Assembly: GCA_023432655.1 (NCBI GenBank)
Contig: JAEYUK010000078.1
Coordinates: forward strand, 1 to 18,605
Source: Pseudomonadota bacterium
Lineage (GTDB): Bacteria > Bdellovibrionota > Bacteriovoracia > Bacteriovoracales > Bacteriovoracaceae
Direction of reading: 5' to 3'
DNA length: 18,605 nucleotides
Shown here: positions 3,656-15,301 of the stretch, piece by piece
Layout: every line of letters begins with the position of its first letter
Position numbering within the stretch: position 1 is the first letter of the stretch
The notes under the pieces: generated by a model
Databases searched by the model: none
Told to the model about the DNA's origin: nothing
The model's input: the letters and a program-made list of their open reading frames with translations, nothing else
Program-made: the position numbers and the translations under genes

Positions 3656-4042
3656 TTATTCCATGTGCTCTGGTGAGAAAGCACAGGTAAGTAGTTCATT
3701 TAATTTTTTTGTTGTTTCTTTTCCAGCTTCGTTACCCATGGTGATTTCTAGGTTACCATCAGCAAACTCGGTCATGACTTGTAGGCACATTCCACAGGGA
3801 GGCCAGCCGTCCTTGGTGTAAACATAAACACGTTTAACTTTTTTATGACCTTCAGAAACGGCCTTCCAGATGGCGACTCTTTCGGCGCAAACTGTGCCAC
3901 CAAAGCTTGCATTCTCAATATTGCAGCCCTGATAGATATGCCCGTCTGTGGTTTCAATGGCGGCTCCCACTTTGGCCTTGGAATAAGGGGAGTGGGATCT
4001 GGTAGAAGCATCAAAGGCCTTGTCGCGTAAATCGTGACTCAT
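3656..4042 (-). CDS. cdd: Cytidine deaminase
   Basis: Zinc enzyme of pyrimidine salvage (EC 3.5.4.5) that deaminates cytidine and deoxycytidine to uridine and deoxyuridine in the cytoplasm. At 128 residues it has the length of the homotetrameric bacterial form. The substrate-binding segment YSKAKVGAAI is at about 20-29. The catalytic motif CAE is at 52-54 (Cys52 zinc ligand, Glu54 proton shuttle), and PCGMC at 82-86 supplies Cys83 and Cys86. Three cysteine ligands are typical of the tetrameric class. Its ATG shares one base with the stop of the purine nucleoside phosphorylase gene (TAATG on the minus strand), so the two are probably translationally coupled. Its uridine product would be handled by the pyrimidine phosphorylase at the head of the operon if that enzyme accepts uridine. 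Confidence 0.96.
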   Translation of the reverse strand: MSHDLRDKAFDASTRSHSPYSKAKVGAAIETTDGHIYQGCNIENASFGGTVCAERVAIWKAVSEGHKKVKRVYVYTKDGWPPCGMCLQVMTEFADGNLEITMGNEAGKETTKKLNELLTCAFSPEHME

Positions 4043-4875
4043 TAAACTTTCCCTAGTTTATGAAGTTCGCTAATAGTTTCAGTTAAAACGGTGGCAAATC
4101 CAACCATGGCCTTTTCTGCCACATTTTTCACATCAGCGTGATCAAGTTTTTCTTTCTTAATCCCAGCAGCATAGTTTGTAATACAGGCCACACCGGCAAC
4201 CTTTAAACCTAAGTGGTTAGCGGCAATTACCTCTGGTACTGTACTCATACCGACCATGTCGGCACCGATGGTTCTTAGCATACGAATTTCCGCCGGTGTT
4301 TCATAAGTTGGACCTAAAACAGAGCAGTAAACTCCATCTTTTAAATTCACTTTATGAGTCGCACCTACTTGAAGAAGAAGGTTACGAAGTTCAGCATCGT
4401 AGGCGTTCCCCATGTCCGGGAAACGAGGACCAAGTTCTGCGATATTTGGTCCAACCAAAGGATTTCTTCCTGAAAGGTTAATGTGGTCGGAGATGGCCAC
4501 CAGATCTCCAGGATGGAAATCTAGATTGATTCCTCCAGAAGCATTGGTAAGAAAAAGATAATCAATCCCGATGGCGGCAAGAGTTCTGACTGGAAGAACG
4601 ATCTCTTCCATCGCATACCCTTCATAAGCGTGAAGTCGACCTTGAAGGGCCACAACTGTCACTCCTCTTACTTCACCAATAATCAAAGCACCAGAATGAC
4701 CTTCAACCGATGTTCTTTTGAAGTGAGGAATATCCTGGTAGGGAATCACGAGTTTATTTTCGATCTGATCAATATAAATCCCAAGCCCTGAACCTAGGAC
4801 GATACCAATCTTAGGTTTCTTGGAAATCTTAGAAAGGATGTATTGAGAGGCTTCCATTATTTTTGTCATAGTCAT
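4042..4875 (-). CDS. punA: Purine nucleoside phosphorylase (trimeric PNP / MTAP family)
   Basis: Catalyses phosphorolysis of purine (deoxy)nucleosides to free base and (deoxy)ribose-1-phosphate (EC 2.4.2.1). The 277 residues match the trimeric mammalian-like PNP family, not hexameric DeoD. Visible motifs are the phosphate loop GSGLG (28-32), GRLHAYEG (79-86), GPTYETPAE (189-196; Glu192 matches the base-binding glutamate) and GMST (209-212). CITN (231-234) has an Asn where human PNP has its purine-binding Asn243. The start at 4875 has AAGGAT eight bases upstream. A second in-frame ATG six bases later is possible but less well spaced. It lies 11 bases after the thymidine phosphorylase gene and overlaps cdd by one base, so it is mid-operon. 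Methylthioadenosine phosphorylase is a relative, but the Asn in CITN favours PNP. Confidence 0.94.
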   Translation of the reverse strand: MTMTKIMEASQYILSKISKKPKIGIVLGSGLGIYIDQIENKLVIPYQDIPHFKRTSVEGHSGALIIGEVRGVTVVALQGRLHAYEGYAMEEIVLPVRTLAAIGIDYLFLTNASGGINLDFHPGDLVAISDHINLSGRNPLVGPNIAELGPRFPDMGNAYDAELRNLLLQVGATHKVNLKDGVYCSVLGPTYETPAEIRMLRTIGADMVGMSTVPEVIAANHLGLKVAGVACITNYAAGIKKEKLDHADVKNVAEKAMVGFATVLTETISELHKLGKV

Positions 4876-4886
4876 AAAAAGTATCC

Positions 4887-6209
4887 TTAGCTTAGTTTCT
4901 CGATGATTAATTTAGGGGATTTCACTTTGCTGGCCGACATCGTGAGGACTTCTTTTAAGAATCTCTTCTTGATTTCTTCAGCAATTGTTTTTTGATGAGG
5001 ATGGTGAGTGATAGTGAAAATGACATCGCCTTTTTTCACCTGATCTCCAATTTTCTTTTTGAATGTGAATCCAACCCCATGATCAATAGCATCTGATTTA
5101 GATTTTCTTCCGCCACCAAGTTCAATCAATAACAATCCAATCTTCTCATTCTGGAACATTTTAATGTATCCGGTCTGAGTTGCTTTAACTTCAGTTGTTT
5201 CTGTGGCCATTGGAAGAAGAGAGTAGTCTTCAACCACCCGGGCATCTCCGCCTTGATTAGTGATAAGTTTTTTAAATTCATTCAGCGCTTTACCGGAAGA
5301 CACCATCTCCAGGGCCTTTTTATGGGCCTTTTCAAAAGTTTTCTCAACGCCTGCAAGGTGAATCATATGGGCCGCCAGAGCGATTGAAAGATCTGTGAGA
5401 TCTTTCGGGCCATTTCCTTTTAAGGTCTCGATGCTTTCAATGAGTTCATTAGAGTGACCAACTTCCAGACCGAGTGGTTGGTTCATGTCAGTAATGAGTG
5501 CCACAGCTTTTTTCTTAAAACGTTTACTGGTAGCGATGAGGCTTTTTCCCAGGGCCTTTGCATCTTTTGGAGTGCGCATGAAGGCACCTGTTCCACATTT
5601 AATATCAAAGACAATACCATTGGCCCCTTCAGCTAACTTTTTACTCATAATAGATGCTGTGATTAAAGGAATGGAATCAATGGTTGCCGTCACATCACGG
5701 AGGGCATAAATCAAACGATCTGCCGGAGCGATGTCAGGGGTCTGACCAATTAAAACCAGACCTTCTTTGTTGAGCATTTTTGAAAACTCTTTAAGGTCCA
5801 AAGCAGTTTTAAAACCTTTGATCGCTTCAATCTTATCAACTGTTCCGCCGGTATGACCTAAGCCTCGACCAGCGATCATAGGAACTTTTACCCCTGCAGC
5901 ACTGGCAATTGGTGCGAGAATGAAAGAAGCCTTATCTCCGATTCCACCCGTGGAGTGCTTATCGATGACATTTTTACCCGGGAATTTGAGCTGTTCTCCA
6001 GACTCGAGCATGGCATCTGTCAAAGCCGCTGTCTCGGAAACGTCCATTCCTTGAATAAACATCGCCATCAGCATGGCCGACATTTGATAATCAGGAATTT
6101 TATTATCTGTGAAACTTTGAATGAACCACTTTATTTCTTTTGAAGTGAGAACTTCTCCGCGCTTCTTTTTATCAATCAGGGGGTAAACTTGAAAATTTTC
6201 TTTAGTCAT
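4887..6209 (-). CDS. deoA: Thymidine / pyrimidine-nucleoside phosphorylase
   Basis: Cleaves thymidine and deoxyuridine (perhaps also uridine) with phosphate to base and (deoxy)ribose-1-phosphate (EC 2.4.2.4 or 2.4.2.2). I chose the ATG at 6209, giving 440 residues, the length of E. coli DeoA. The frame runs upstream to 6509, but that part is antisense to another gene and unlike the family. With this start, R171, S186 and K190 fall at the numbers of the E. coli catalytic residues, and His85 lies in KHSTGGIGDK (84-93). The family signature is at about 115-129 (RGLGHTGGTVDKIEA). The C-terminal alpha/beta domain is complete. It is the first gene of a deoA-punA-cdd-exonuclease operon. A TTGCCA-N17-TATGAT promoter lies about 43 bases upstream of the start. 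The Shine-Dalgarno sequence is weak (GTGAG). Whether uridine is also a substrate cannot be told from the sequence. Confidence 0.95.
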   Translation of the reverse strand: MTKENFQVYPLIDKKKRGEVLTSKEIKWFIQSFTDNKIPDYQMSAMLMAMFIQGMDVSETAALTDAMLESGEQLKFPGKNVIDKHSTGGIGDKASFILAPIASAAGVKVPMIAGRGLGHTGGTVDKIEAIKGFKTALDLKEFSKMLNKEGLVLIGQTPDIAPADRLIYALRDVTATIDSIPLITASIMSKKLAEGANGIVFDIKCGTGAFMRTPKDAKALGKSLIATSKRFKKKAVALITDMNQPLGLEVGHSNELIESIETLKGNGPKDLTDLSIALAAHMIHLAGVEKTFEKAHKKALEMVSSGKALNEFKKLITNQGGDARVVEDYSLLPMATETTEVKATQTGYIKMFQNEKIGLLLIELGGGRKSKSDAIDHGVGFTFKKKIGDQVKKGDVIFTITHHPHQKTIAEEIKKRFLKEVLTMSASKVKSPKLIIEKLS

Positions 6210-6234
6210 TTTTAACTCACATGTAACAAGAGAT

Positions 6235-6263
6235 TTGCCAACTTTAAGATGGGAACTTATCAT
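6235..6263 (+). promoter_or_regulatory. Sigma-70-like promoter of the small membrane protein gene
   Basis: TTGCCA (6235-6240), 17 bases, TATCAT (6258-6263). Each box differs from consensus at one position. The predicted start is near 6270, about 37 bases before the ATG at 6307. Confidence 0.5.
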
Positions 6264-6287
6264 AGTCATAAGGATTCCCGCTGGCAA
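6259..6287 (-). promoter_or_regulatory. Sigma-70-like promoter of the deoA operon
   Basis: Read on the minus strand: TTGCCA (6287-6282), 17 bases, TATGAT (6264-6259). Each box differs from consensus at one position. Predicted transcription starts near 6252, giving a leader of about 43 bases. Its -10 box overlaps that of the plus-strand promoter. Confidence 0.5.
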
Positions 6288-6306
6288 ACTAACTCCTAGG
6301 ATTGGT

Positions 6307-6708
6307 ATGAAAAAAATTTCGGCACTTTTATTATCTTTAAACCTTTTTTTCGTGACTGCGGGACTTTCTGCGGCCCAAGCTGAGGATGATCTGATCAAGA
6401 GCACGCAAAACGATATTATGTTAGTTGCTGGAGCAGGGGCCGCTGGAGCCATCCTTGGTCTTTCTACACTATCTTTTGTTGATAAACCTTCGAAGCACCT
6501 TTCTAACATCTGGACCGGTGCCGCTGTGGGGGTAATTGTCGGGGTGATTTTTGTTGCCTACAATAGTGCTCAGAAGAATTCTGAGGATTTACAGTCCTCA
6601 AAAGACTTCAATTCCTTTGAAAGATTTGCCTGGCATTCTGACAATTCTCAAGATCTAACATTACCTTCCGTTCAATTTGGCACCAAAATCTGGGAATTAA
6701 GCTTCTAA
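6307..6708 (+). CDS. Small exported or inner-membrane protein, unknown function
   Basis: I do not recognise a family with an assigned function. The ATG at 6307 is preferred over upstream codons because AGGA sits five bases before it and a typical signal peptide follows at once. The product is 133 residues. Residues 1-25 look like a signal sequence (KK, hydrophobic core, AQA before ED). Two glycine/alanine-rich hydrophobic stretches follow at about 37-57 and 67-86, the second with GxxxG-like spacing, which suits helix packing. The last 45 residues are hydrophilic and acidic. If the signal is cleaved, this is a two-span membrane hairpin; if not, a three-span protein. It is divergent from the deoA operon and lies just before the nucleoside transporter gene, so an accessory role in nucleoside uptake is possible. 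That is inference from position only. Confidence 0.8.
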   Translation: MKKISALLLSLNLFFVTAGLSAAQAEDDLIKSTQNDIMLVAGAGAAGAILGLSTLSFVDKPSKHLSNIWTGAAVGVIVGVIFVAYNSAQKNSEDLQSSKDFNSFERFAWHSDNSQDLTLPSVQFGTKIWELSF

Positions 6709-6724: not shown

Positions 6725-6753
6725 TTGCCATGAAAAATTGTGCTCGGTATAAG
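6725..6753 (+). promoter_or_regulatory. Sigma-70-like promoter of the nucleoside transporter gene
   Basis: TTGCCA (6725-6730), 17 bases, TATAAG (6748-6753), five of six matches in each box. It lies about 38 bases before the ATG at 6791. The -35 hexamer is the same as in the two promoters around 6260. Confidence 0.5.
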
Positions 6754-6790
6754 TGAACAGTTTAACTTAATACACACATTAGGATGGCTT

Positions 6791-8008
6791 ATGGAACGGT
6801 TGGTTTCTTTGTTGGGTTTGTTCGTCATGATAGGCATTGCTTACGCCTTAAGTGAAAAGAAAAAAGCAATTCAATGGAGACCGGTTGTTACAGGTCTTTT
6901 ATTGCAAGTAGTCTTCGGACTCATCATTATGAAGACCACCGTAGGTAGAAATTTTTTCGATACTACCGGTAAGGGTTTTAATGCAATTCTTGCTTACACT
7001 GGTGAGGGTTCAAAGTTTCTTTTCGGGGGACTCGCCACGCCTTCTGACAGCCTCGGTTTTATTTTCGCGACGATGGTTCTTCCTACGATTATTTTTATGA
7101 GTGCCCTCATGTCTGTGCTTTATCACATAGGCATTATGCAAAAAGTGGTTGAACTGGTGGCCAAAGTCATGATGAAAGTCATGCGTACTTCTGGGGCCGA
7201 ATCACTTGCTGCGGCCGCCAATATTTTCGTAGGACAGACCGAAGCTCCTCTCGTGATTAAGCCTTTCATTGGTAAAATGACTAAGTCTGAAATCATGTCT
7301 CTTATGACGGGTGGAATGGCGACAGTAGCCGGAGGAGTTCTTGCGGCCTATGTTGGTTTCGGTGTTGACCCTGCTCACTTACTTGCTGCTTCGGTGATGT
7401 CGGCACCAGCTGCATTAGTTTGTGCTAAGTTGCTTCTTCCTGAAACAGAAGAGTCTGTTACGGCCGGAGTGGTGAAAGTTGATCTGCCAAAGAATGCTAC
7501 CAATACAATCGAAGCTGCGGCCAATGGAGCCTCAGATGGATTAAGATTAGCTGTTAACGTAGCGGCCATGCTTCTTGCTTTTATTGCCCTGATTGCCATG
7601 TTGAATGGAATCTTGGGCGCTCTTGGGGGGCTAGTTGGCTTTCCACAACTTTCTTTTGAACTCATCATGGGATATGTGAATGCCCCAATAGCATGGTTAC
7701 TAGGTGTGCCATGGGAGGACTGTTTCACTGTTGGTGCTATCCTTGGGAAGAAACTCGTTCTTAACGAATTTGTCGGATATTTGGATCTAATCGCGGCCAA
7801 GGGACAACTTTCTGAGCGTGCCACAATTATTACTACGTATGCTCTTTGCGGCTTCTCTAACTTTTCTTCAATTGCCATCCAAGTAGGGGGCATTGGAAGT
7901 CTTGCTCCTGAGAAAAAATCCGTCCTTGCGGCCTATGGTTTGAAGGCGATGATTGGCGGAACTTTGGCATGCTACATGACAGCATGTATTGCCGGACTTT
8001 TTATTTGA
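6791..8008 (+). CDS. nupC: Concentrative nucleoside transporter (NupC / CNT family)
   Basis: Inner-membrane symporter that brings nucleosides into the cell with protons or sodium. I chose the ATG at 6791, which has AGGA six bases upstream, giving 405 residues (E. coli NupC is 400). A GTG at 6740 would add 17 residues and overlap the predicted promoter. The sequence is hydrophobic throughout. It contains the nucleoside-binding motif GQTEAP (148-153) and the CNT signature GKKLVLNEFVGY (319-330), both on the re-entrant loops that hold substrate in CNT structures. Whether the coupling ion is sodium or a proton cannot be decided by eye. It has its own promoter and lies next to the deoA-punA-cdd operon, which would use its imported substrates. 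No terminator is visible after the gene, so read-through into the RNase gene is possible. Confidence 0.93.
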   Translation: MERLVSLLGLFVMIGIAYALSEKKKAIQWRPVVTGLLLQVVFGLIIMKTTVGRNFFDTTGKGFNAILAYTGEGSKFLFGGLATPSDSLGFIFATMVLPTIIFMSALMSVLYHIGIMQKVVELVAKVMMKVMRTSGAESLAAAANIFVGQTEAPLVIKPFIGKMTKSEIMSLMTGGMATVAGGVLAAYVGFGVDPAHLLAASVMSAPAALVCAKLLLPETEESVTAGVVKVDLPKNATNTIEAAANGASDGLRLAVNVAAMLLAFIALIAMLNGILGALGGLVGFPQLSFELIMGYVNAPIAWLLGVPWEDCFTVGAILGKKLVLNEFVGYLDLIAAKGQLSERATIITTYALCGFSNFSSIAIQVGGIGSLAPEKKSVLAAYGLKAMIGGTLACYMTACIAGLFI

Positions 8009-8069: not shown

Positions 8070-9647
8070 ATGGCAAAAGAACTAGTGATCAACCAGACTC
8101 ACAGTGAGTCGCGTATTGCGCTCATTGAGAATGGTGAGATCTTGGACTTTCTGATCGAGCGGCATTCACCGAAAAACGAATCGGCCCCAATCGTAGGAAA
8201 TATTTATTTAGGGCGCGTTTTGCGCGTCCTTCCCGGTATGCAATCGGCCTTTGTTGATATTGGCCAGGAGCGCGCTGCCTTCCTCTATGTAGACGACGCT
8301 TATCTTCCAACTTTGGAAGAGCAGCGTGATATGCAAAGCCGGATCGCCACTGCTGAATCTGCTACTAAACGACTGGGAGAAATTATCCCAGATGAATTCT
8401 CCACCCTCACTGAAACTGTCGACATGAAATTCCGCCCGGATGTAAAAATCCAGGACTTCTTAAAAGAAGGGGATGAGATTGTAGTTCAAATCGCGAAAGA
8501 ACCGATTTCAACTAAAGGTCCACGTGTCACTCGTCATATTACATTGGCCGGTCGTCACATTGTTTATATGCCTTTTATTGAGCACACTGGTGTTTCACGC
8601 CGAATCGAATCCGAAGAGGAGCGAAAGCGGTTAAAAGAAATTCTGGATTCAGTCAGACCTGAAGGGGTGGGTGTAATTGCTCGAACCGTGGCGGAAACCC
8701 AAAGCTATAAAGTTCTTAAGAGCGATTACAATAATCTGGTTAAGATCTGGAAAGATGTTCAGAAAAAAATTGAGAAAGCAAAAGCTCCTACTGAACTTCA
8801 CCAAGACCTCTCTTTTGTCCAGCGTGCTCTAAGAGATATAATGGATGAGGATGTGGATGTATTAGTGGCCGATACCAAGGCCTCTATTAAACAGATCGAA
8901 AAGTTCATTCAGCGATTTATTCCTCATCATAAGGCCAAAATTAAATATTACGATAGTGAGACTCCTATCTTTGAGCACTATGGGATTGATATTGAGATTG
9001 AGCGAGCTCTTTCTAATCAGGTGTTTTTGAAGTCTGGCGGTTCAATCAATATTGACCAAACAGAAGCTCTTGTTTCCATTGATGTGAATACCGGAAAATT
9101 TGTCGGTAAAAAGACTTTGGAAGAGACGATTCTTAAAACAAACCTGGAAGCCGTGAAGGAGATTGTTTATCAGCTCCGTCTGCGCAACTGCGGTGGTATC
9201 ATCATTATCGATTTTATCGATATGGAAAAAGAAGAACACCGGAACCAGGTCTATACAACGCTTTTGGAAGCTTTGAAAAAAGACCGCTCGAAAACGAACG
9301 TCCTCCCAATCTCCGGTCTTGGACTGGTTGAAATGACCCGTAAGCGCACTCGCGATACCTTGATTCGTACAATGTGTGAACCCTGTCCTTATTGTGAGGG
9401 AGTAGGTCGGGTGAAGTCAGTGGAAACCGTGAGTTTTGAAGTGATCCGCGAAGTGCAAAAAGTGATGAAGCGCTCTCAGGCACCTAAAATTACAGTTTTT
9501 GCCCATCCTGAAGTCTGTGCCAAATTGTCTTCCGAAGACTTTGGCATCATCGAAGTTCTGGAAGAAACATTTAATAAAACTCTTCTGGTTCGTGCGGATA
9601 ATAATTATCACGCTGAACAGTACGAGATTTACGCTCCGGAAAACTAA
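8070..9647 (+). CDS. rng: Ribonuclease G/E family endoribonuclease
   Basis: Single-strand endoribonuclease acting in 5' rRNA maturation and mRNA turnover. At 525 residues it is close to RNase G (489) and lacks the long scaffold tail of RNase E. An S1 domain covers about 40-145, with an insertion of some 25-30 residues relative to E. coli RNase G (about 82-125). The 5'-sensor/RNase H-like region follows. The magnesium-binding aspartates are D338 in SIDVNTGK and D381 in IIIIDFIDM. The zinc-link CPYCEGVG is at 439-446 (Cys439, Cys442) and allows dimer formation. The start has AGGA eight bases upstream. The gene runs tail-to-tail with a lipoprotein gene, and the two stop codons overlap. RNase E itself is the alternative name, but no C-terminal degradosome region is present. 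Confidence 0.93.
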   Translation: MAKELVINQTHSESRIALIENGEILDFLIERHSPKNESAPIVGNIYLGRVLRVLPGMQSAFVDIGQERAAFLYVDDAYLPTLEEQRDMQSRIATAESATKRLGEIIPDEFSTLTETVDMKFRPDVKIQDFLKEGDEIVVQIAKEPISTKGPRVTRHITLAGRHIVYMPFIEHTGVSRRIESEEERKRLKEILDSVRPEGVGVIARTVAETQSYKVLKSDYNNLVKIWKDVQKKIEKAKAPTELHQDLSFVQRALRDIMDEDVDVLVADTKASIKQIEKFIQRFIPHHKAKIKYYDSETPIFEHYGIDIEIERALSNQVFLKSGGSINIDQTEALVSIDVNTGKFVGKKTLEETILKTNLEAVKEIVYQLRLRNCGGIIIIDFIDMEKEEHRNQVYTTLLEALKKDRSKTNVLPISGLGLVEMTRKRTRDTLIRTMCEPCPYCEGVGRVKSVETVSFEVIREVQKVMKRSQAPKITVFAHPEVCAKLSSEDFGIIEVLEETFNKTLLVRADNNYHAEQYEIYAPEN

Positions 9648-10801: not shown

Positions 10802-11512
10802 ATGAATCTTAAGGGTATTGCTTTTACTCTATTCGCTTTTTTAGTCTTAGCTTCAAGTGCCTCCTATGCTGGAGTTGCTAAATACAACCGTTGGACCCAG
10901 GCGGAAATCAATGTGTGTTTTGGAGAAAAAGAGACTGAGTACTATATGACCGGAATGGAGGGCCCCAAGAGAGACTGGAAGCAAAGTGAGAAAGAACTGG
11001 TTCAGAAGGTACTGGAAGAAGAATACACACCTGCGCGGACTGGTTACTTTTTCTCAGGTTTTAAAAATTGTTCGGAAACTGAAAATATTAACATTGTGGT
11101 CGGCGTCCGATCTGGATTCACTGTCCAGTCAGTGGCCGGAGTTAATGGGATTGCTACCGTAGGAATGGGTGGAAGTAAGACTAGTTATGAAAGGGACCGT
11201 GGAGCTGTAGTCCTCTCTCCAAGAGGAGTAAGTAAAACAACCATCGTTCACGAATTTGGTCATGTCTTGGGTCTTTTGCATGAACATTTGCACCCTAACG
11301 CCCGGGAAGAGTCAGGAAGCCTTTGCCCATATTATTTGAATAGTGGGGATATTGATCGTGCCACCCTCTATACTGATTTTGATAAAACCTCGGTTATGAA
11401 TTATTGCCACATTTTTAGTCCGTCTGGAAGGAAGGCCGGTCTAAGTGAAAAAGATGTGGAACTTATTCTTGATATATATAATGACAAACACCCTTTTAGA
11501 CTAAGACGCTAA
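10802..11512 (+). CDS. Secreted astacin/matrixin-like zinc metalloprotease (metzincin)
   Basis: Small exported metalloprotease of 236 residues. Residues 1-23 are a signal peptide (likely cut after SYA). The catalytic motif is HEFGHVLGLLHEH (150-162): His150, His154 and His160 bind zinc and Glu151 is the catalytic base. The Glu after the third His is as in astacins. The Met-turn is SVMNYC (Met199), as metzincins require. Four cysteines in the mature part (39, 90, 175, 202) could form two disulfides, which fits export to periplasm or medium. The stretch from signal peptide to catalytic motif is about 125 residues and contains no evident inhibitory propeptide or cysteine switch. The start has AGGAG six bases upstream. 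The gene stands alone between a divergent lipoprotein gene and the ribosomal operon. The substrate is unknown; digestion of prey or environmental protein is a possibility. Confidence 0.88.
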   Translation: MNLKGIAFTLFAFLVLASSASYAGVAKYNRWTQAEINVCFGEKETEYYMTGMEGPKRDWKQSEKELVQKVLEEEYTPARTGYFFSGFKNCSETENINIVVGVRSGFTVQSVAGVNGIATVGMGGSKTSYERDRGAVVLSPRGVSKTTIVHEFGHVLGLLHEHLHPNAREESGSLCPYYLNSGDIDRATLYTDFDKTSVMNYCHIFSPSGRKAGLSEKDVELILDIYNDKHPFRLRR

Positions 11513-11577: not shown

Positions 11578-11693
11578 AAACCCATTGAGCTAACCTTTTC
11601 GCTGTGTTAATTTGCCCCCTGACATTCATTTTACTTATTTCATTCTCGCTCATAGCAATGGTGTTATGGGCTTTTTATAATCCAGGAGGAAAT

Positions 11694-12308
11694 ATGATCT
11701 ACGAATTGGCTTTCGTCGTTCGCCCTGACGCATCTGAGGAAGTTGTAACTTCCATTAAGAACTCCCTAGCTGATACTTTCAAAGAGTACGGCGCAGAAGC
11801 TCTAGTTACTGATTCATGGGGAGTGAAAACTTTCGCTCAACCAACAGAGTCTGGCCTTAAAAAAGGCGCTTACCACTATTTCATGTACAAAGGTGCAGGA
11901 AATCTTAACGCTGAAATCGAGCGTAAGTTCCTCATTAACGAACACCTTGTTCGTCACATGATCATCAAGCTTGGCGAAGATAAGCACCAAGACGAAATCG
12001 TTAAGGGTTACAAAAACCCTAACCACACTCAAGCAGCAGAAGTTGACGAAGAAGGTGGTTTCGGTGGTGATGACAAAGACAAGAAAATGCACTCAAAGCG
12101 CAAGTCTTGTTGGTTCTCAGCTAAGAAAACATCTCCAGATTGGAAAGACCCTAAGTCTTATTCTTGGCTTGTAAACGAGTTCGGAAAAATTTCTCCAGCT
12201 CGTATCACTGGTCTTACTCCGACTTTCCAGCGTCGTGCAAACGAAGCTATTAAGCGCGGACGTAACATGCTTCTTATCAGCTACCAGTCTAACGATACTG
12301 CTCGTTAA
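11694..12308 (+). CDS. rpsF-rpsR: Fused ribosomal proteins S6 and S18 in one reading frame
   Basis: One 204-codon frame encodes both 30S platform proteins. Residues 1 to about 100 are S6, from MIYELAFVVRP to the end of its second helix/strand unit. About 101-134 is a hydrophilic linker with GGFGGDDKDKK. About 135-204 is S18: KRKSCWF, then GKISPARITGLTPTFQRR and AIKRGRNMLLISY, matching the conserved core and tail. No stop or frameshift lies between them. The ATG at 11694 has a strong AGGAGG four bases upstream; the hydrophobic in-frame sequence before it (from 11604) is not part of S6. An internal ATG at 12087 (Met132) has no Shine-Dalgarno sequence, and S6 would still read through into S18. 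Codon use is strongly biased, as in highly expressed genes. S6 and S18 form a heterodimer that binds 16S rRNA, so a covalent pair is structurally plausible. Cleavage after translation cannot be excluded. Confidence 0.93.
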   Translation: MIYELAFVVRPDASEEVVTSIKNSLADTFKEYGAEALVTDSWGVKTFAQPTESGLKKGAYHYFMYKGAGNLNAEIERKFLINEHLVRHMIIKLGEDKHQDEIVKGYKNPNHTQAAEVDEEGGFGGDDKDKKMHSKRKSCWFSAKKTSPDWKDPKSYSWLVNEFGKISPARITGLTPTFQRRANEAIKRGRNMLLISYQSNDTAR

Positions 12309-12327: not shown

Positions 12328-13308
12328 ATGAATACAGAAGTGATGCAACAACCACAATTGACTACCGGTCGATTGCTCCTCTTGGGAGTATCTTCGGTTA
12401 TTTTGTGCGTAAGCTTCATCATGACTATATTCGCTCCATTTCCATTGGCCCTGGCGGTTATCCTTTATGGACGTGCCAAGGGTTACCTAACAGGTTTAGC
12501 AGGATTAGTTTTAAGCTACTACTTTGCTTCAATGGTTTATGCTGATTTTACGCTGTTTGGATTTTATTTCGTCGTTTTGATTTTCGGGTTCGGCATTGCT
12601 GAAATTGTCCTCAGGGGAATTTCTCCTATTAAAGGACTGGTGAGTTTTGGAATGGGGTTCATCCTTCTTTCTGCCGCCACTTTCAGTTTCATGATGAGCA
12701 GTTTGAAAACAACTCCGCGTGAGTTTATCCTTCAGCAGATTGAGAGAAGTGCTGATAAAATTGCCGAGCAGAAAAAAGTCGTTGAGCAGAGTGGGGATAA
12801 AGACTCCATTCAGGTTCTGCAACTACTGGATCGTCCTGATTTACTGGCCAAGGAAATGATTGAATCGTTCCCGAGCTATTTCTTCATGGCGGTGTTTCTG
12901 ATGCTTTGGTTTAACATGTTCATGGTTCTTAAAAGCCGCAGGCTTTTATTTTCCGGACAGGATTATCCGTACTCTGAAAGAAATCTCCTGAGCTTTAAAG
13001 TTCCCTTCGGATTTATTGTGGTGCTGGCCTGTGGTTTAGCATTAGCAGTCTGGGGAGAGCAGTTAGGTTCAGCTGCTTATGAATCAATTGGTCATACAAT
13101 CATCTTTTGTCTTGGAATATTTTATTTTTTTCAGGGCTTTGGTGTTTTTAGCGATCTTTTAAATTTCTTAGGTATTGTCGGATTCTTTCGGACTTTAATT
13201 GTGATGATTACGATCTTCACAGGAAGTTACCTCATCGCCTTTGCCGGTTTATTTGATAATTGGTTTGATTTCCGAAAGTATTTTGTAAAACGTAAAACTG
13301 AAGATTAA
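12328..13308 (+). CDS. DUF2232-like polytopic membrane protein
   Basis: Integral membrane protein of 326 residues, similar in layout and location to the DUF2232/YybS family found between rpsR and rplI in several bacterial groups. Hydrophobic segments occur at about 17-49, 57-97, 103-125, 184-205, 233-250, 257-280 and 288-312, giving seven or eight spans. A charged, soluble-looking loop lies at about 128-178. The function of the family is not known to me. It begins 19 bases after the S6-S18 stop and ends 17 bases before rplI, so it belongs to the ribosomal operon. AGGA lies 12 bases before the chosen ATG, which is rather far; a second in-frame ATG at 12343 is an alternative. Confidence 0.82.
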   Translation: MNTEVMQQPQLTTGRLLLLGVSSVILCVSFIMTIFAPFPLALAVILYGRAKGYLTGLAGLVLSYYFASMVYADFTLFGFYFVVLIFGFGIAEIVLRGISPIKGLVSFGMGFILLSAATFSFMMSSLKTTPREFILQQIERSADKIAEQKKVVEQSGDKDSIQVLQLLDRPDLLAKEMIESFPSYFFMAVFLMLWFNMFMVLKSRRLLFSGQDYPYSERNLLSFKVPFGFIVVLACGLALAVWGEQLGSAAYESIGHTIIFCLGIFYFFQGFGVFSDLLNFLGIVGFFRTLIVMITIFTGSYLIAFAGLFDNWFDFRKYFVKRKTED

Positions 13309-13325: not shown

Positions 13326-13892
13326 ATGAAAGTCATCCTTACAGAGAAGGTTAAGGCCTTAGGAACAATCGGCGAGATCGTTAACGTATCTGCCGGTTTC
13401 GCTCGTAACTATCTTTTCCCAAAGAAATTCGCCATTCTTGCTGACGAAAAGAACTCTAACGTTCTTAAAGACAAGCAAAAAGCTCTAGCTAAAAAAATCT
13501 CTGCTGAAAAAGCAGAAGCTGAAGCTGTTAAGAAAAAAATCGAAGGGACAACTATCGAACTTATTAAAAAAGTTGGAGCTAACGGTCGTCTTTTTGGTGC
13601 AGTAACAACTGCAGAAATCGCGAAAGAACTTGAAAAATTGGGTGCTCATGTTGAGCGTCGTCTTATTCAAGTTGAAGCTATCAAAGCTCTTGGTACTTAC
13701 GACGTTAAAGCTAAGCTTTTCAACGACGTAGTTGCTAACTTCAAACTTAAAGTTGCTATGGATGCTGCTATGGCCGAGCAACTTAAGAAAGAACAAGCTG
13801 AAGCTCAAAAGCGTAACGCTGAGAAAAAAGCAAAAGCTGAAGCTGCAAAAGCTGAAGCCGCTGCTGCTGAAGCTGCAGCCACTGAAGAATAA
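13326..13892 (+). CDS. rplI: Ribosomal protein L9 with Lys/Ala/Glu-rich C-terminal extension
   Basis: 50S subunit protein that binds 23S rRNA near the L1 stalk with its N-domain and helps maintain frame. The N-domain signature is GEIVNVSAGFARNYLFPKKFA (split here: GEIVNVSAG, FARNYLFPKKFA; residues 16-36). A long central helix covers about 42-75, and the C-domain motif GRLFGAVTTAEIA is at 87-99. Normal L9 is about 148-150 residues; this one is 188. Residues 150-188 are a low-complexity extension of Lys, Ala and Glu, likely an extended helix. AGGAGA lies just upstream of the ATG. Codon use is strongly biased, like that of the S6-S18 gene. An intrinsic terminator follows the stop closely. Confidence 0.96.
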   Translation: MKVILTEKVKALGTIGEIVNVSAGFARNYLFPKKFAILADEKNSNVLKDKQKALAKKISAEKAEAEAVKKKIEGTTIELIKKVGANGRLFGAVTTAEIAKELEKLGAHVERRLIQVEAIKALGTYDVKAKLFNDVVANFKLKVAMDAAMAEQLKKEQAEAQKRNAEKKAKAEAAKAEAAAAEAAATEE

Positions 13893-13957: not shown

Positions 13958-15301
13958 ATGATGGCCAATCCACAGAATGAATTACCTCACGATATTGGAG
14001 CTGAAAAAGCGCTCCTTGGTTGTTTACTCATCGATAATTCAAGTTTCGATGAAATTTCTGATGTTAACCTTGAAGCTTCGGATTTCTATCACCCTCAATT
14101 TGGGATTATCTTTCAAGCGATTAAAGACCTTCATATGGAGGCGATGCCTTTTGATATCGTCACTGTCGCTTCAAAATTAAATGATCACGGCAAACTTGAA
14201 AAAGTGGGTGGGCAAAGTGCTCTGATTACCATTTGTGATGAGATCGGTTCCGCGGCTAACGTTGAATACTACGCCCAGCTCATCAAACAAAAGAGCATGC
14301 TCAGAGAAGTGGTAAGAACTGCAACTCGAGTCATGCAAACTGGAACTAATTTTTCCGGAAATGTAGAAGACTTTCTTCAGGAAGTTGAAGCGAGTTTCTT
14401 CAAGCTAACCGCACAAACAAAAAATAACAAAATGGTTCCTCTGAAGCAGGCGCTTTATGAGAACTTAAAGGAACTGGAGAAACCGGCCCGCGCTAAAGGC
14501 GAGATCATGGGGGTTTCTACTGGCTTTCAATCTATCGATAGAAGTCTTTTAGGACTTCAACCTGGTCAGCTGGTTTTGATTGCTGCCCGTCCTGGTATGG
14601 GGAAAACCGCTTTGGCGCTTAATTGGGCCGTGGCCGCCGCAAAACAAACCAATATGGCCGTAGCAGTCTTCTCTTACGAGATGATGTACGCGGAACTTTC
14701 CATGCGTCTTCTTGCCTCAGAAGCCTGTGTTGATGCCCGTAAACTCAAAACTAAGGAGTTTAATGAGATGGATCTGCGAAGCATCTCTAATGCCGTCCAG
14801 AAACTTTCAAATTTGAAACTCTATATTAACGATTCTGGTTCAACGAACTTGATGGATATCCGTTCCTATTGCCGGAAACTAAAAGCCGAGCAGGGACTGG
14901 CGATGATTGTGGTGGATTACTTACAGATCATGCCAATGCACGTGAAAAAGCAAAACCGTGAACAGGAAATTGCAGAACTCTCACGTGGTTTTAAAATGCT
15001 TGCCAACGAACTTGAAATTCCTGTCGTTGCCCTTTCACAGCTTAACCGAACGGCCGCTTCACGTACTGACCGTAGACCTCAGCTTCAGGATCTTCGAGAA
15101 TCAGGTTCCCTAGAGCAAGATGCTAACATCGTTTGTCTGATTCACCGTGAGGATTATTATGATCCTCAAACGCCGAAAAAAGGGATTGCTGAAGTTATTA
15201 TCGCGAAGAACCGTAACGGTGAGCCTGGAACAGTCGAGCTCTCCTGGATTGGTTCACAGACTAAGTTCGCTGATCTCGCACCAGGTAAAGCTGAGTCGTA
15301 A
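13958..15301 (+). CDS. dnaB: Replicative DNA helicase DnaB
   Basis: Hexameric 5'-3' helicase that unwinds the replication fork and recruits primase. The 447 residues have normal DnaB layout. The N-terminal domain starts at about LPHDIGAEKALLGCLL (9-24). A linker lies near 155-185. The RecA-like domain has Walker A at ARPGMGKT (210-217), catalytic glutamate Glu241 in SYEM, Walker B ending at Asp320 (IVVDYLQI) and the H4 signature around 372-395 (QDLRESGSLEQDAN). The C-terminal AKNRNGEPG holds the arginine-finger region. No intein interrupts it. AAGGGG lies just upstream; ATG at 13958 or the adjacent ATG at 13961 may be used. The rplI-dnaB order is common. The next gene starts immediately after its stop. 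Confidence 0.96.
   Translation: MMANPQNELPHDIGAEKALLGCLLIDNSSFDEISDVNLEASDFYHPQFGIIFQAIKDLHMEAMPFDIVTVASKLNDHGKLEKVGGQSALITICDEIGSAANVEYYAQLIKQKSMLREVVRTATRVMQTGTNFSGNVEDFLQEVEASFFKLTAQTKNNKMVPLKQALYENLKELEKPARAKGEIMGVSTGFQSIDRSLLGLQPGQLVLIAARPGMGKTALALNWAVAAAKQTNMAVAVFSYEMMYAELSMRLLASEACVDARKLKTKEFNEMDLRSISNAVQKLSNLKLYINDSGSTNLMDIRSYCRKLKAEQGLAMIVVDYLQIMPMHVKKQNREQEIAELSRGFKMLANELEIPVVALSQLNRTAASRTDRRPQLQDLRESGSLEQDANIVCLIHREDYYDPQTPKKGIAEVIIAKNRNGEPGTVELSWIGSQTKFADLAPGKAES

What the first reader, a model, noticed from the sequence alone, without database searches (positions are those of the whole stretch)
11694..12308. Ribosomal proteins S6 and S18 encoded as one fused polypeptide
Directly seen: a single frame without a stop holds a full S6 domain, a Gly/Asp/Lys linker (about 101-134) and a full S18 domain. 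In most bacteria rpsF and rpsR are separate adjacent genes. S6 and S18 bind each other and 16S rRNA on the platform, so a fusion would force 1:1 supply and assembly in cis. It would also change the S6:S18 feedback on rpsF leaders known in other bacteria. I do not know whether this fusion is already described.
Basis: partly seen in the sequence, partly recalled or inferred. Interest (0 to 1): 0.75.

Follow-up and report, generated by a model that had tools for sequence, protein, structure and literature searches.

The report
Single-chain ribosomal protein S6–S18 fusion
In most sampled members of a bacterial group that includes the predator Bacteriovorax, two partner proteins of the small ribosomal subunit (S6 and S18), normally separate, are encoded as one joined protein, and the gene carries an RNA hairpin that looks like the usual feedback switch.

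Summary
Real. Window 11694-12308 encodes one 204-aa protein with a complete S6 and a complete S18 domain, both above curated cut-offs. It is no sequencing slip: 31 related loci and 70 of 229 S18-bearing genomes in a phylum sample have both in one open frame. In 72 of 73 fused genomes searched whole for both, that frame is the only S6 and the only S18. In the sampled order, 89 of 94 S18 genes lie in frames of 203-252 aa. The linker evolves as protein; no internal start is conserved. Added here: (1) a strongly covarying leader RNA that can sequester the Shine-Dalgarno sequence, laid out like the S6:S18-binding rpsF_leader; (2) unfused relatives in the order have zinc-type S18, 0 of 74 fused S18 do; (3) separate-gene relatives exist, but one origin versus several is unsettled. 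Six literature searches aimed at the fusion showed no description of it, though JGI labels already read S6/S18. Whether the chain stays uncut in the ribosome is untested.

The parts
11629..11696 (+). leader RNA of the fused gene, ending on its start codon (rpsF_leader-like layout)
   Evidence: covariance models R1/R2; window hit 73.2 bits (the window is among the sequences of both models); 33 of 34 hits over 43 sources lie at an S6 gene start; covariation score 0.515 against shuffled 0.183
11637..11647 (+). 5' strand of helix H1 (11637-11641 and 11645-11647), pairs with 11686-11693
   Evidence: helices 1 and 2; 5 of their 8 pairs show changes on both sides
11648..11671 (+). hairpin H2
   Evidence: helix 3, 96.3% of cells paired, 6 of 8 pairs with changes on both sides; anchored stem of 6 or more bp in 53 of 60 leaders against 10% of shuffles
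11684..11689 (+). Shine-Dalgarno AGGAGG, partly inside helix H1
   Evidence: read; pairing
11694..12308 (+). fused S6-S18 coding sequence, 204 aa, stop included
11694..11978 (+). S6 domain (residues 1-95)
   Evidence: Pfam 3-92, TIGR00166 1-93
11979..12092 (+). linker rich in Asp/Lys/Glu/Gly/Ala (residues 96-133)
   Evidence: alignment; dN/dS 0.104 and composition over residues 96-130
12087..12089 (+). internal ATG (Met132) without Shine-Dalgarno match, conserved among close relatives but not across the family
12093..12308 (+). S18 domain (residues 134-204, then stop); lacks three of the four zinc-ligand residues, keeps Cys139
   Evidence: Pfam 145-195, TIGR00165 134-198; ligand table; Cys139
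12328..13308 (+). DUF2232 membrane protein gene, next in the cluster
   Evidence: PF09991; follows on the same strand in 35 of 36 fused loci
13326..13892 (+). rplI (L9), conserved neighbour
   Evidence: PF03948, PF01281; 35 of 36 fused loci
13958..15301 (+). dnaB, conserved neighbour
   Evidence: PF00772, PF03796; 35 of 36 fused loci

Best explanation
This is the S6/S18 gene of a Bacteriovorax-like bacterium (by kinship; its own genome is not held), encoding both proteins as one chain. Shown by sequence: one frame, complete domains, linker under protein-level selection, conservation through most of the sampled order, no conserved separate start for S18, and a covarying leader that can pair with the Shine-Dalgarno sequence. 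Inferred: one initiation event makes S6 and S18 at 1:1; the two domains pair within the chain, tethered by a flexible charged linker, and bind the 30S platform as a unit; surplus chains bind the leader hairpin as the S6:S18 heterodimer does in E. coli and shut off their own translation. Also inferred: the fusion came from neighbouring rpsF and rpsR genes, as kept by G204, G248, G252, G268 and G276. The second half of the linker corresponds to the acidic N-terminal extension of S18 in those unfused relatives.
For: Domains above cut-offs. 120 of 120 listed homologues (of 673) carry both Pfam domains. 31 fused loci. 13 of 13 genomes with exactly one S6 and one S18, in one frame. 60 further genomes with S6 and S18 in the same open frame, 59 of them with one S6 and all with one S18. 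89 of 94 S18 genes of the sampled order in frames of 203-252 aa. dN/dS: S6 0.081, linker 0.104, S18 0.041 over 97 pairs among 18 close relatives. No Shine-Dalgarno match at 37 of 41 internal ATGs, but a 5-6 base match at the gene start in 57 of 61. Leader at the S6 start in 29 of 29 fused sources given to model R2, 8 of them not in the model. Separate-gene relatives whose S18 carries the same [DE][KR]D[KR][KR]M stretch.
Against: No protein, ribosome or expression data. AlphaFold modelled the S6 part (10-residue block means 65-91 over residues 1-100) but not the S18 part (means 36-51 over residues 141-190), so the intramolecular interface is untested. Model R2 does not find the E. coli leader (L231), so homology of the leader to rpsF_leader is not shown. 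In the covariation control, the count of pairs changed on both sides (11) was reached by 45 of 500 shuffles, unlike the other measures. One MAG-like genome, G106, has an in-frame TAA in the linker with no ATG/GTG/TTG between it and the S18 core. G241 has a second, unfused S6 on another contig. Met132 is invariant among the 36 sequences, so secondary initiation in this sub-lineage is not excluded.
Confidence: 0.77

Rival explanations
1. The fusion is a precursor: the chain is translated whole and then cut in the charged linker, so the ribosome holds ordinary separate S6 and S18.
For: The linker is rich in Asp/Lys/Glu/Gly, probably unstructured (block mean pLDDT 32-36 over residues 111-150) and ends in a conserved charged, partly dibasic stretch, which could be a protease site. 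In the window a weak astacin-like metallopeptidase ORF lies directly upstream (10802-11512; 22.7 bits against a cut-off of 22.5).
Against: The charged stretch is also kept in unfused S18 of relatives, where there is nothing to cut. A relative of the upstream peptidase ORF is found only in the window among the 36 fused loci (of the 46 loci) compared, and its N-terminus looks like a secretion signal (by eye). No wider search for a processing protease was made.
Confidence: 0.13
2. Both forms are made: the whole chain plus separate S18 by internal initiation at Met132 (12087).
For: An in-frame ATG at the place of residue 132 occurs in 36 of 61 distinct fused genes (read from the rows) and is invariant in the 36 sequences.
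Against: 37 of 41 internal ATGs tested have no Shine-Dalgarno match of 4 or more bases, and 17 of 61 fused genes have no ATG/GTG/TTG in the 25 codons checked.
Confidence: 0.07
3. Artefact: a missed stop codon or a sequencing error joins two genes.
For: Sporadic S6+S18 open frames in other bacteria look like this: 8 of the 16 read keep a Met directly before the S18 start.
Against: 120 of 120 listed homologues with both domains, 73 genomes with both in one frame, protein-level selection on the linker, and a single S18 in all 73.
Confidence: 0.01
4. Real fusion, but the leader is not an S6:S18 switch: it is another structure, for example a mere translation-rate element or a target of another protein.
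For: R2 does not match E. coli; no Rfam family reached a meaningful score on the leader (best 18.8 bits against a gathering score of 42).
Against: Same place and same layout as described for rpsF_leader (a stem that holds the Shine-Dalgarno sequence plus a conserved hairpin; PMC4647458, sections read), and found at the S6 starts of unfused G204 and, weakly, of G225 and G188, outside the order, where S18 was not found beside S6.
Confidence: 0.2

Closest known systems
rpsF and rpsR as separate genes of one cluster (E. coli rpsF-priB-rpsR-rplI)
   Same: same two protein families, in the same order, next to rplI
   Different: here one frame, no priB between, and no conserved separate start for S18
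rpsF_leader, the S6:S18-binding mRNA structure (PMC4647458: abstract and the sections on introduction, leader, leader mutations and conclusions read; Matelska 2013 and Fu 2014 only as cited there)
   Same: sits directly before the S6 start, a stem holds the Shine-Dalgarno sequence, plus a conserved hairpin
   Different: the model from this family does not recognise the E. coli sequence; the effector would be one chain, not a heterodimer
zinc-less (C-) S18 paralogues of other bacteria, reviewed in PMC13418864 (passages seen)
   Same: loss of the CxxC zinc motif in S18
   Different: here there is no second S18 in any of the 73 fused genomes searched, and the zinc-less form is fused to S6
scattered S6+S18 open frames in other bacteria (18 of 116 long S18-bearing proteins list both Pfam domains; 16 of those 18 read)
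   Same: both domains in one frame
   Different: 17 of the 18 are single-member clusters; 3 of the 16 read have S18 first; 8 of the 16 keep a Met directly before the S18 start

Membership tests
bacterial ribosomal protein bS6 | PF01250 / TIGR00166 above curated cut-off | tested here: met
   64.3 against 27 bits; 47.7 against 42.9 bits
bacterial ribosomal protein bS18 | PF01084 / TIGR00165 above curated cut-off | tested here: met
   51 against 21 bits; 52.1 against 38.75 bits
bacterial ribosomal proteins bS6 and bS18 | the genome's only S6 and S18 | tested here: met
   in relatives: 73 of 73 fused genomes have one S18 and 72 of 73 one S6. Not testable for the window's own genome
bacterial ribosomal proteins bS6 and bS18 | presence in purified 30S subunits | not testable with these tools
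   needs mass spectrometry or cryo-EM
zinc-type (C+) S18 | four ligands CxxC ... CxxH | tested here: not met
   0 of 74 distinct fused S18 have all four (window: C-S-T-F type); 4 of 4 distinct unfused S18 of the same order have
rpsF_leader (S6:S18-binding mRNA structure) | structure at the rpsF start with a stem holding the Shine-Dalgarno sequence and a conserved hairpin | tested here: met
   against the description in PMC4647458
rpsF_leader (S6:S18-binding mRNA structure) | recognisable homology to the E. coli leader | tested here: not met
   no R2 match in L231 up to E = 5; no Rfam match near a gathering score
rpsF_leader (S6:S18-binding mRNA structure) | binding by S6:S18 and repression | not testable with these tools
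   needs gel shift and reporter

The most novel reading that the evidence does not exclude
Most of an order of bacteria that includes Bacteriovorax runs its ribosomes with a single-chain S6-S18 protein that assembles as a unit and represses its own mRNA as a one-chain effector, and this architecture goes together with loss of the zinc site of S18. Fusion plus zinc loss may have happened more than once, or been reversed, since trees of neighbouring genes and RpoB do not readily accept one fused clade.
Probability: 0.5. Interest if true: 0.75.

Novelty: new variant of a known kind. Interest (0 to 1): 0.62.

Why it matters
Lasting fusions between bacterial ribosomal proteins are rare (recalled). 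S6 and S18 form a heterodimer before they join the 30S assembly (PMC4647458, introduction read), so nature appears to have made the tethered version that assembly studies would want to test, kept through most of an order. It gives a direct test of whether the S6:S18 pair is the unit of assembly and of feedback, and it links a change of protein architecture to loss of a zinc site. Pipelines that expect a separate rpsR may score it as missing here: several databases name the fused gene only 'S6'.

Tried and rejected
Internal start for S18 as a conserved feature: rejected as a rule. Missed stop or sequencing error: rejected (conservation). One origin of the fusion: tested and left open. Tree of rplI+dnaB+DUF2232, 42 rows, p-AU for being one clade: all fused 0.026; fused plus stop-bearing G106 0.009; the 5 unfused of the order 0.003; unfused plus G106 0.020; at least 3 changes of state. 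RpoB, 27 rows: fused 0.017; fused plus G106 0.257; the 4 unfused are a clade in the best tree but with support 52/38; unfused plus G106 0.014. Combined, 24 rows: 0.0025; 0.056; 0.057; 0.004. G268 is not in the last two (no RpoB found; it also has a long branch). A tree of the short S6+S18 domains put G204 next to the outgroup with support 66. Structure prediction: uninformative for S18 and the interface. Rfam: nothing meaningful on the leader. Fusions with Firmicutes-like S18: none of the 120 listed proteins (of 652) has PF01250; the rest were not seen. E. coli-like S18: 18 of 116.

Literature: ten searches. Six aimed at the fusion (13, 16, 17, 42, 81, 90; listings only, of which 13 showed 20 of 40 papers, 42 showed 20 of 32 and 90 showed 10 of 59); no listed title or abstract start describes an S6-S18 fusion. 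PMC2837039 and PMC11656739 were searched for passages: the first speaks of fused gene clusters in general, the second holds none of the terms. PMC9825181 and PMC13418864: passages on zinc-less paralogues. PMC4647458: abstract and sections 3, 5, 7 and 9 read. Most subscription journals are not held, so absence from print is not shown.

Full report
What is there. The window frame 11694-12308 encodes 204 aa (23.2 kDa) with a complete S6 domain (Pfam residues 3-92) and a complete S18 domain (145-195), both over curated cut-offs in Pfam and NCBIfam. AGGAGG ends 4 bases before the ATG. Upstream lie an RNase E/G gene (8070-9647), an unassigned ORF on the other strand and a weak astacin-like ORF; downstream lie DUF2232, rplI and dnaB. 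The three downstream genes follow on the same strand in 35 of 36 fused loci compared (L156 is cut by its contig end); in L176 dnaB lies about 3 kb further on.

It is a family, not an accident. All 120 listed homologues (of 673) carry both domains. 31 loci from titled genome records encode it at 65-98% identity, each in one frame; titles mostly say Bacteriovoracaceae or Bacteriovorax stolpii, one Halobacteriovorax, some only Proteobacteria, Bdellovibrionales or Bdellovibrio. Genomes were then searched whole. In 13 of 13 there is one S6 and one S18, in one frame. In a sample of 240 genomes of the phylum, 229 had S18. 70 of these 229 have S6 and S18 in one frame: 60 (same frame length from both searches), and 10 of the 13 above. 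Of the 60, all have one S18 and 59 one S6. In the sample of the order, 94 of 97 had S18, and 89 of 94 lie in frames of 203-252 aa. The other five are G204, G248 and G252 (separate genes), G106 (stop in the linker) and G253 (cut by a contig end). For some of the 89, S6 in the same frame was not checked separately. The sample of G106's family (95 genomes, 88 with S18) added G268 and G276 with separate genes and G277 cut by a contig end.

The linker is translated. Among 61 distinct fused genes (68 fused frames, 7 duplicates dropped) the distance from the end of S6 to the S18 cysteine region varies from 39 to 54 residues, always in frame. dN/dS over 97 pairs among 18 close relatives is 0.081 (S6), 0.104 (linker) and 0.041 (S18). 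The linker is rich in Asp, Lys, Glu, Gly and Ala.

No conserved second start. 42 of 61 genes have an ATG in the 25 codons checked, 36 of them at the place of Met132. Of 41 ATGs tested, 37 have no Shine-Dalgarno match of 4 or more bases and 4 have one of 4. At the gene start, 57 of 61 have a match of 5 or 6 bases. 17 of 61 have no ATG, GTG or TTG in that stretch. Distances were counted from Ser138, one residue before Cys139.

Relatives with separate genes. In G204 rpsF ends in two stop codons, and rpsR follows in another frame with its own start and a charged N-terminal extension. G248, G252, G276 and G268 also have separate, neighbouring genes. All five S18 extensions carry [DE][KR]D[KR][KR]M just before the S18 core, much like the end of the linker in the fused proteins. 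So the linker looks like S6 tail plus S18 extension. In some genomes outside the order S6 and S18 lie far apart, for example G188, positions 28375 and 3028352 of one contig; I take these for Bdellovibrio-like by inference only.

Zinc ligands. Among 100 distinct aligned S18 of the loci then held, fused 0 of 74 have the four ligands; all 74 keep the first Cys. Unfused within the order, 4 of 4 distinct have them (G204, G248, G268, and G276, whose stretch also stands for G252). Outside the order 10 of 19 have them. Three further rows that the script counted as unfused are G106 and two contig-cut genes; none is zinc-type. These genomes are related, so the match between fusion and zinc loss rests on few independent events.

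Leader RNA. 53 of 60 leaders have a stem of 6 or more bp anchored at the same G, against 10% of shuffles (one of 61 leaders was cut by a contig end). A model from 12 leaders gave 21 hits up to E = 5 in 42 sources, the window among them. On that alignment 92.7% of cells pair (shuffled 70.2), 72 cells show changes on both sides (shuffled 26.6), and the covariation score is 0.515 (shuffled 0.183; 0.113 or less when slid); the number of pairs changed on both sides, 11, was reached by 45 of 500 shuffles. The alignment was fitted to the structure and leans towards it. The model rebuilt from these 21 gave 34 hits in 43 sources: 31 end on an in-frame ATG at the S6 gene (28 directly at the domain start, 3 within 42 bases), 2 lie within 4 bases of it, and 1 lies elsewhere at E = 3.3. 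That is 29 of 29 fused sources (8 not in the model, E up to 0.0085), plus stop-bearing G106, unfused G204, and, weakly, G225 (E = 0.0007) and G188 (E = 0.03) outside the order. No hit: G252, G248, G276, G268 (about 40 bases of upstream DNA held), G018, G094, G041, G014, the lone S18 region of G188, and E. coli. So four of the five separate-gene relatives in the order lack it as far as seen. Layout and place match the rpsF_leader described in PMC4647458, where the S6:S18 heterodimer represses rpsF in E. coli. Homology is not shown.

How it most likely works. One initiation makes one chain; the domains pair within it and join the 30S platform; surplus chain binds its leader and closes the Shine-Dalgarno sequence. 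The first step is strongly supported by sequence; the rest is inference from the known roles of S6 and S18. A linker of about 40 residues is long enough to span two proteins that touch each other (recalled geometry, not measured here).

Against. No wet evidence. The structure model is silent on S18. G106 has an in-frame TAA with no start codon between it and the S18 core: error or real break, unknown. RpoB places G106 with six fused genomes (85/89), while neighbouring genes place it with unfused ones (96/95). One or several origins of the fusion is not settled.

Elsewhere. With an E. coli-type S18 and a length filter, 116 long S18-bearing proteins appeared, 18 of them listing both domains. Of the 16 read, 8 keep a Met directly before S18 and 3 have the domains in reverse order. 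With a B. subtilis-type S18, none of the 120 listed (of 652) had S6. So a widely kept fusion was seen only in this order, within the reach of these searches.

Novelty. JGI already labels some members 'ribosomal protein S6/ribosomal protein S18', so the domain pair is visible in databases. Six literature searches aimed at the fusion (partial listings) showed no paper on it.

Noticed in passing
L092/L155 (G106), linker of the fused gene: An in-frame TAA splits S6 from S18, and no ATG/GTG/TTG follows before the S18 core: a broken gene, an assembly error or unusual decoding.
   Followed up: partly
L151, L152, L153 upstream of rpsF (G252, G248, G276): These unfused genomes lack a match to the common leader but show a different inverted repeat before the Shine-Dalgarno sequence (read by eye).
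   Followed up: no
L095 and L096 (G094): Two S18 genes, one zinc-type beside S6 and one zinc-less elsewhere: a C+/C- pair in one genome.
   Followed up: no
G241, contig C102 (L032): A second, unfused S6 scoring well above the fused one; contamination or a real extra copy.
   Followed up: no
P0152 and P0157: Two related S6+S18 chains with E. coli-like S18 share a linker without a Met before S18; possibly an independent fusion in another lineage.
   Followed up: no
G188, G219, G159 and similar: In several genomes outside the order rpsR lies far from rpsF, yet a weak match to the leader model remains at rpsF in G188 and G225.
   Followed up: partly
window 10802-11512: A weak astacin-like metallopeptidase ORF directly upstream of the fused gene, without a relative in the 45 other loci compared.
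   Followed up: partly
window 3656-6509 and 6740-8008: Cytidine deaminase, phosphorylase-superfamily, pyrimidine nucleoside phosphorylase and Na+-dependent nucleoside transporter genes sit together (Pfam), a likely nucleoside-salvage cluster.
   Followed up: no
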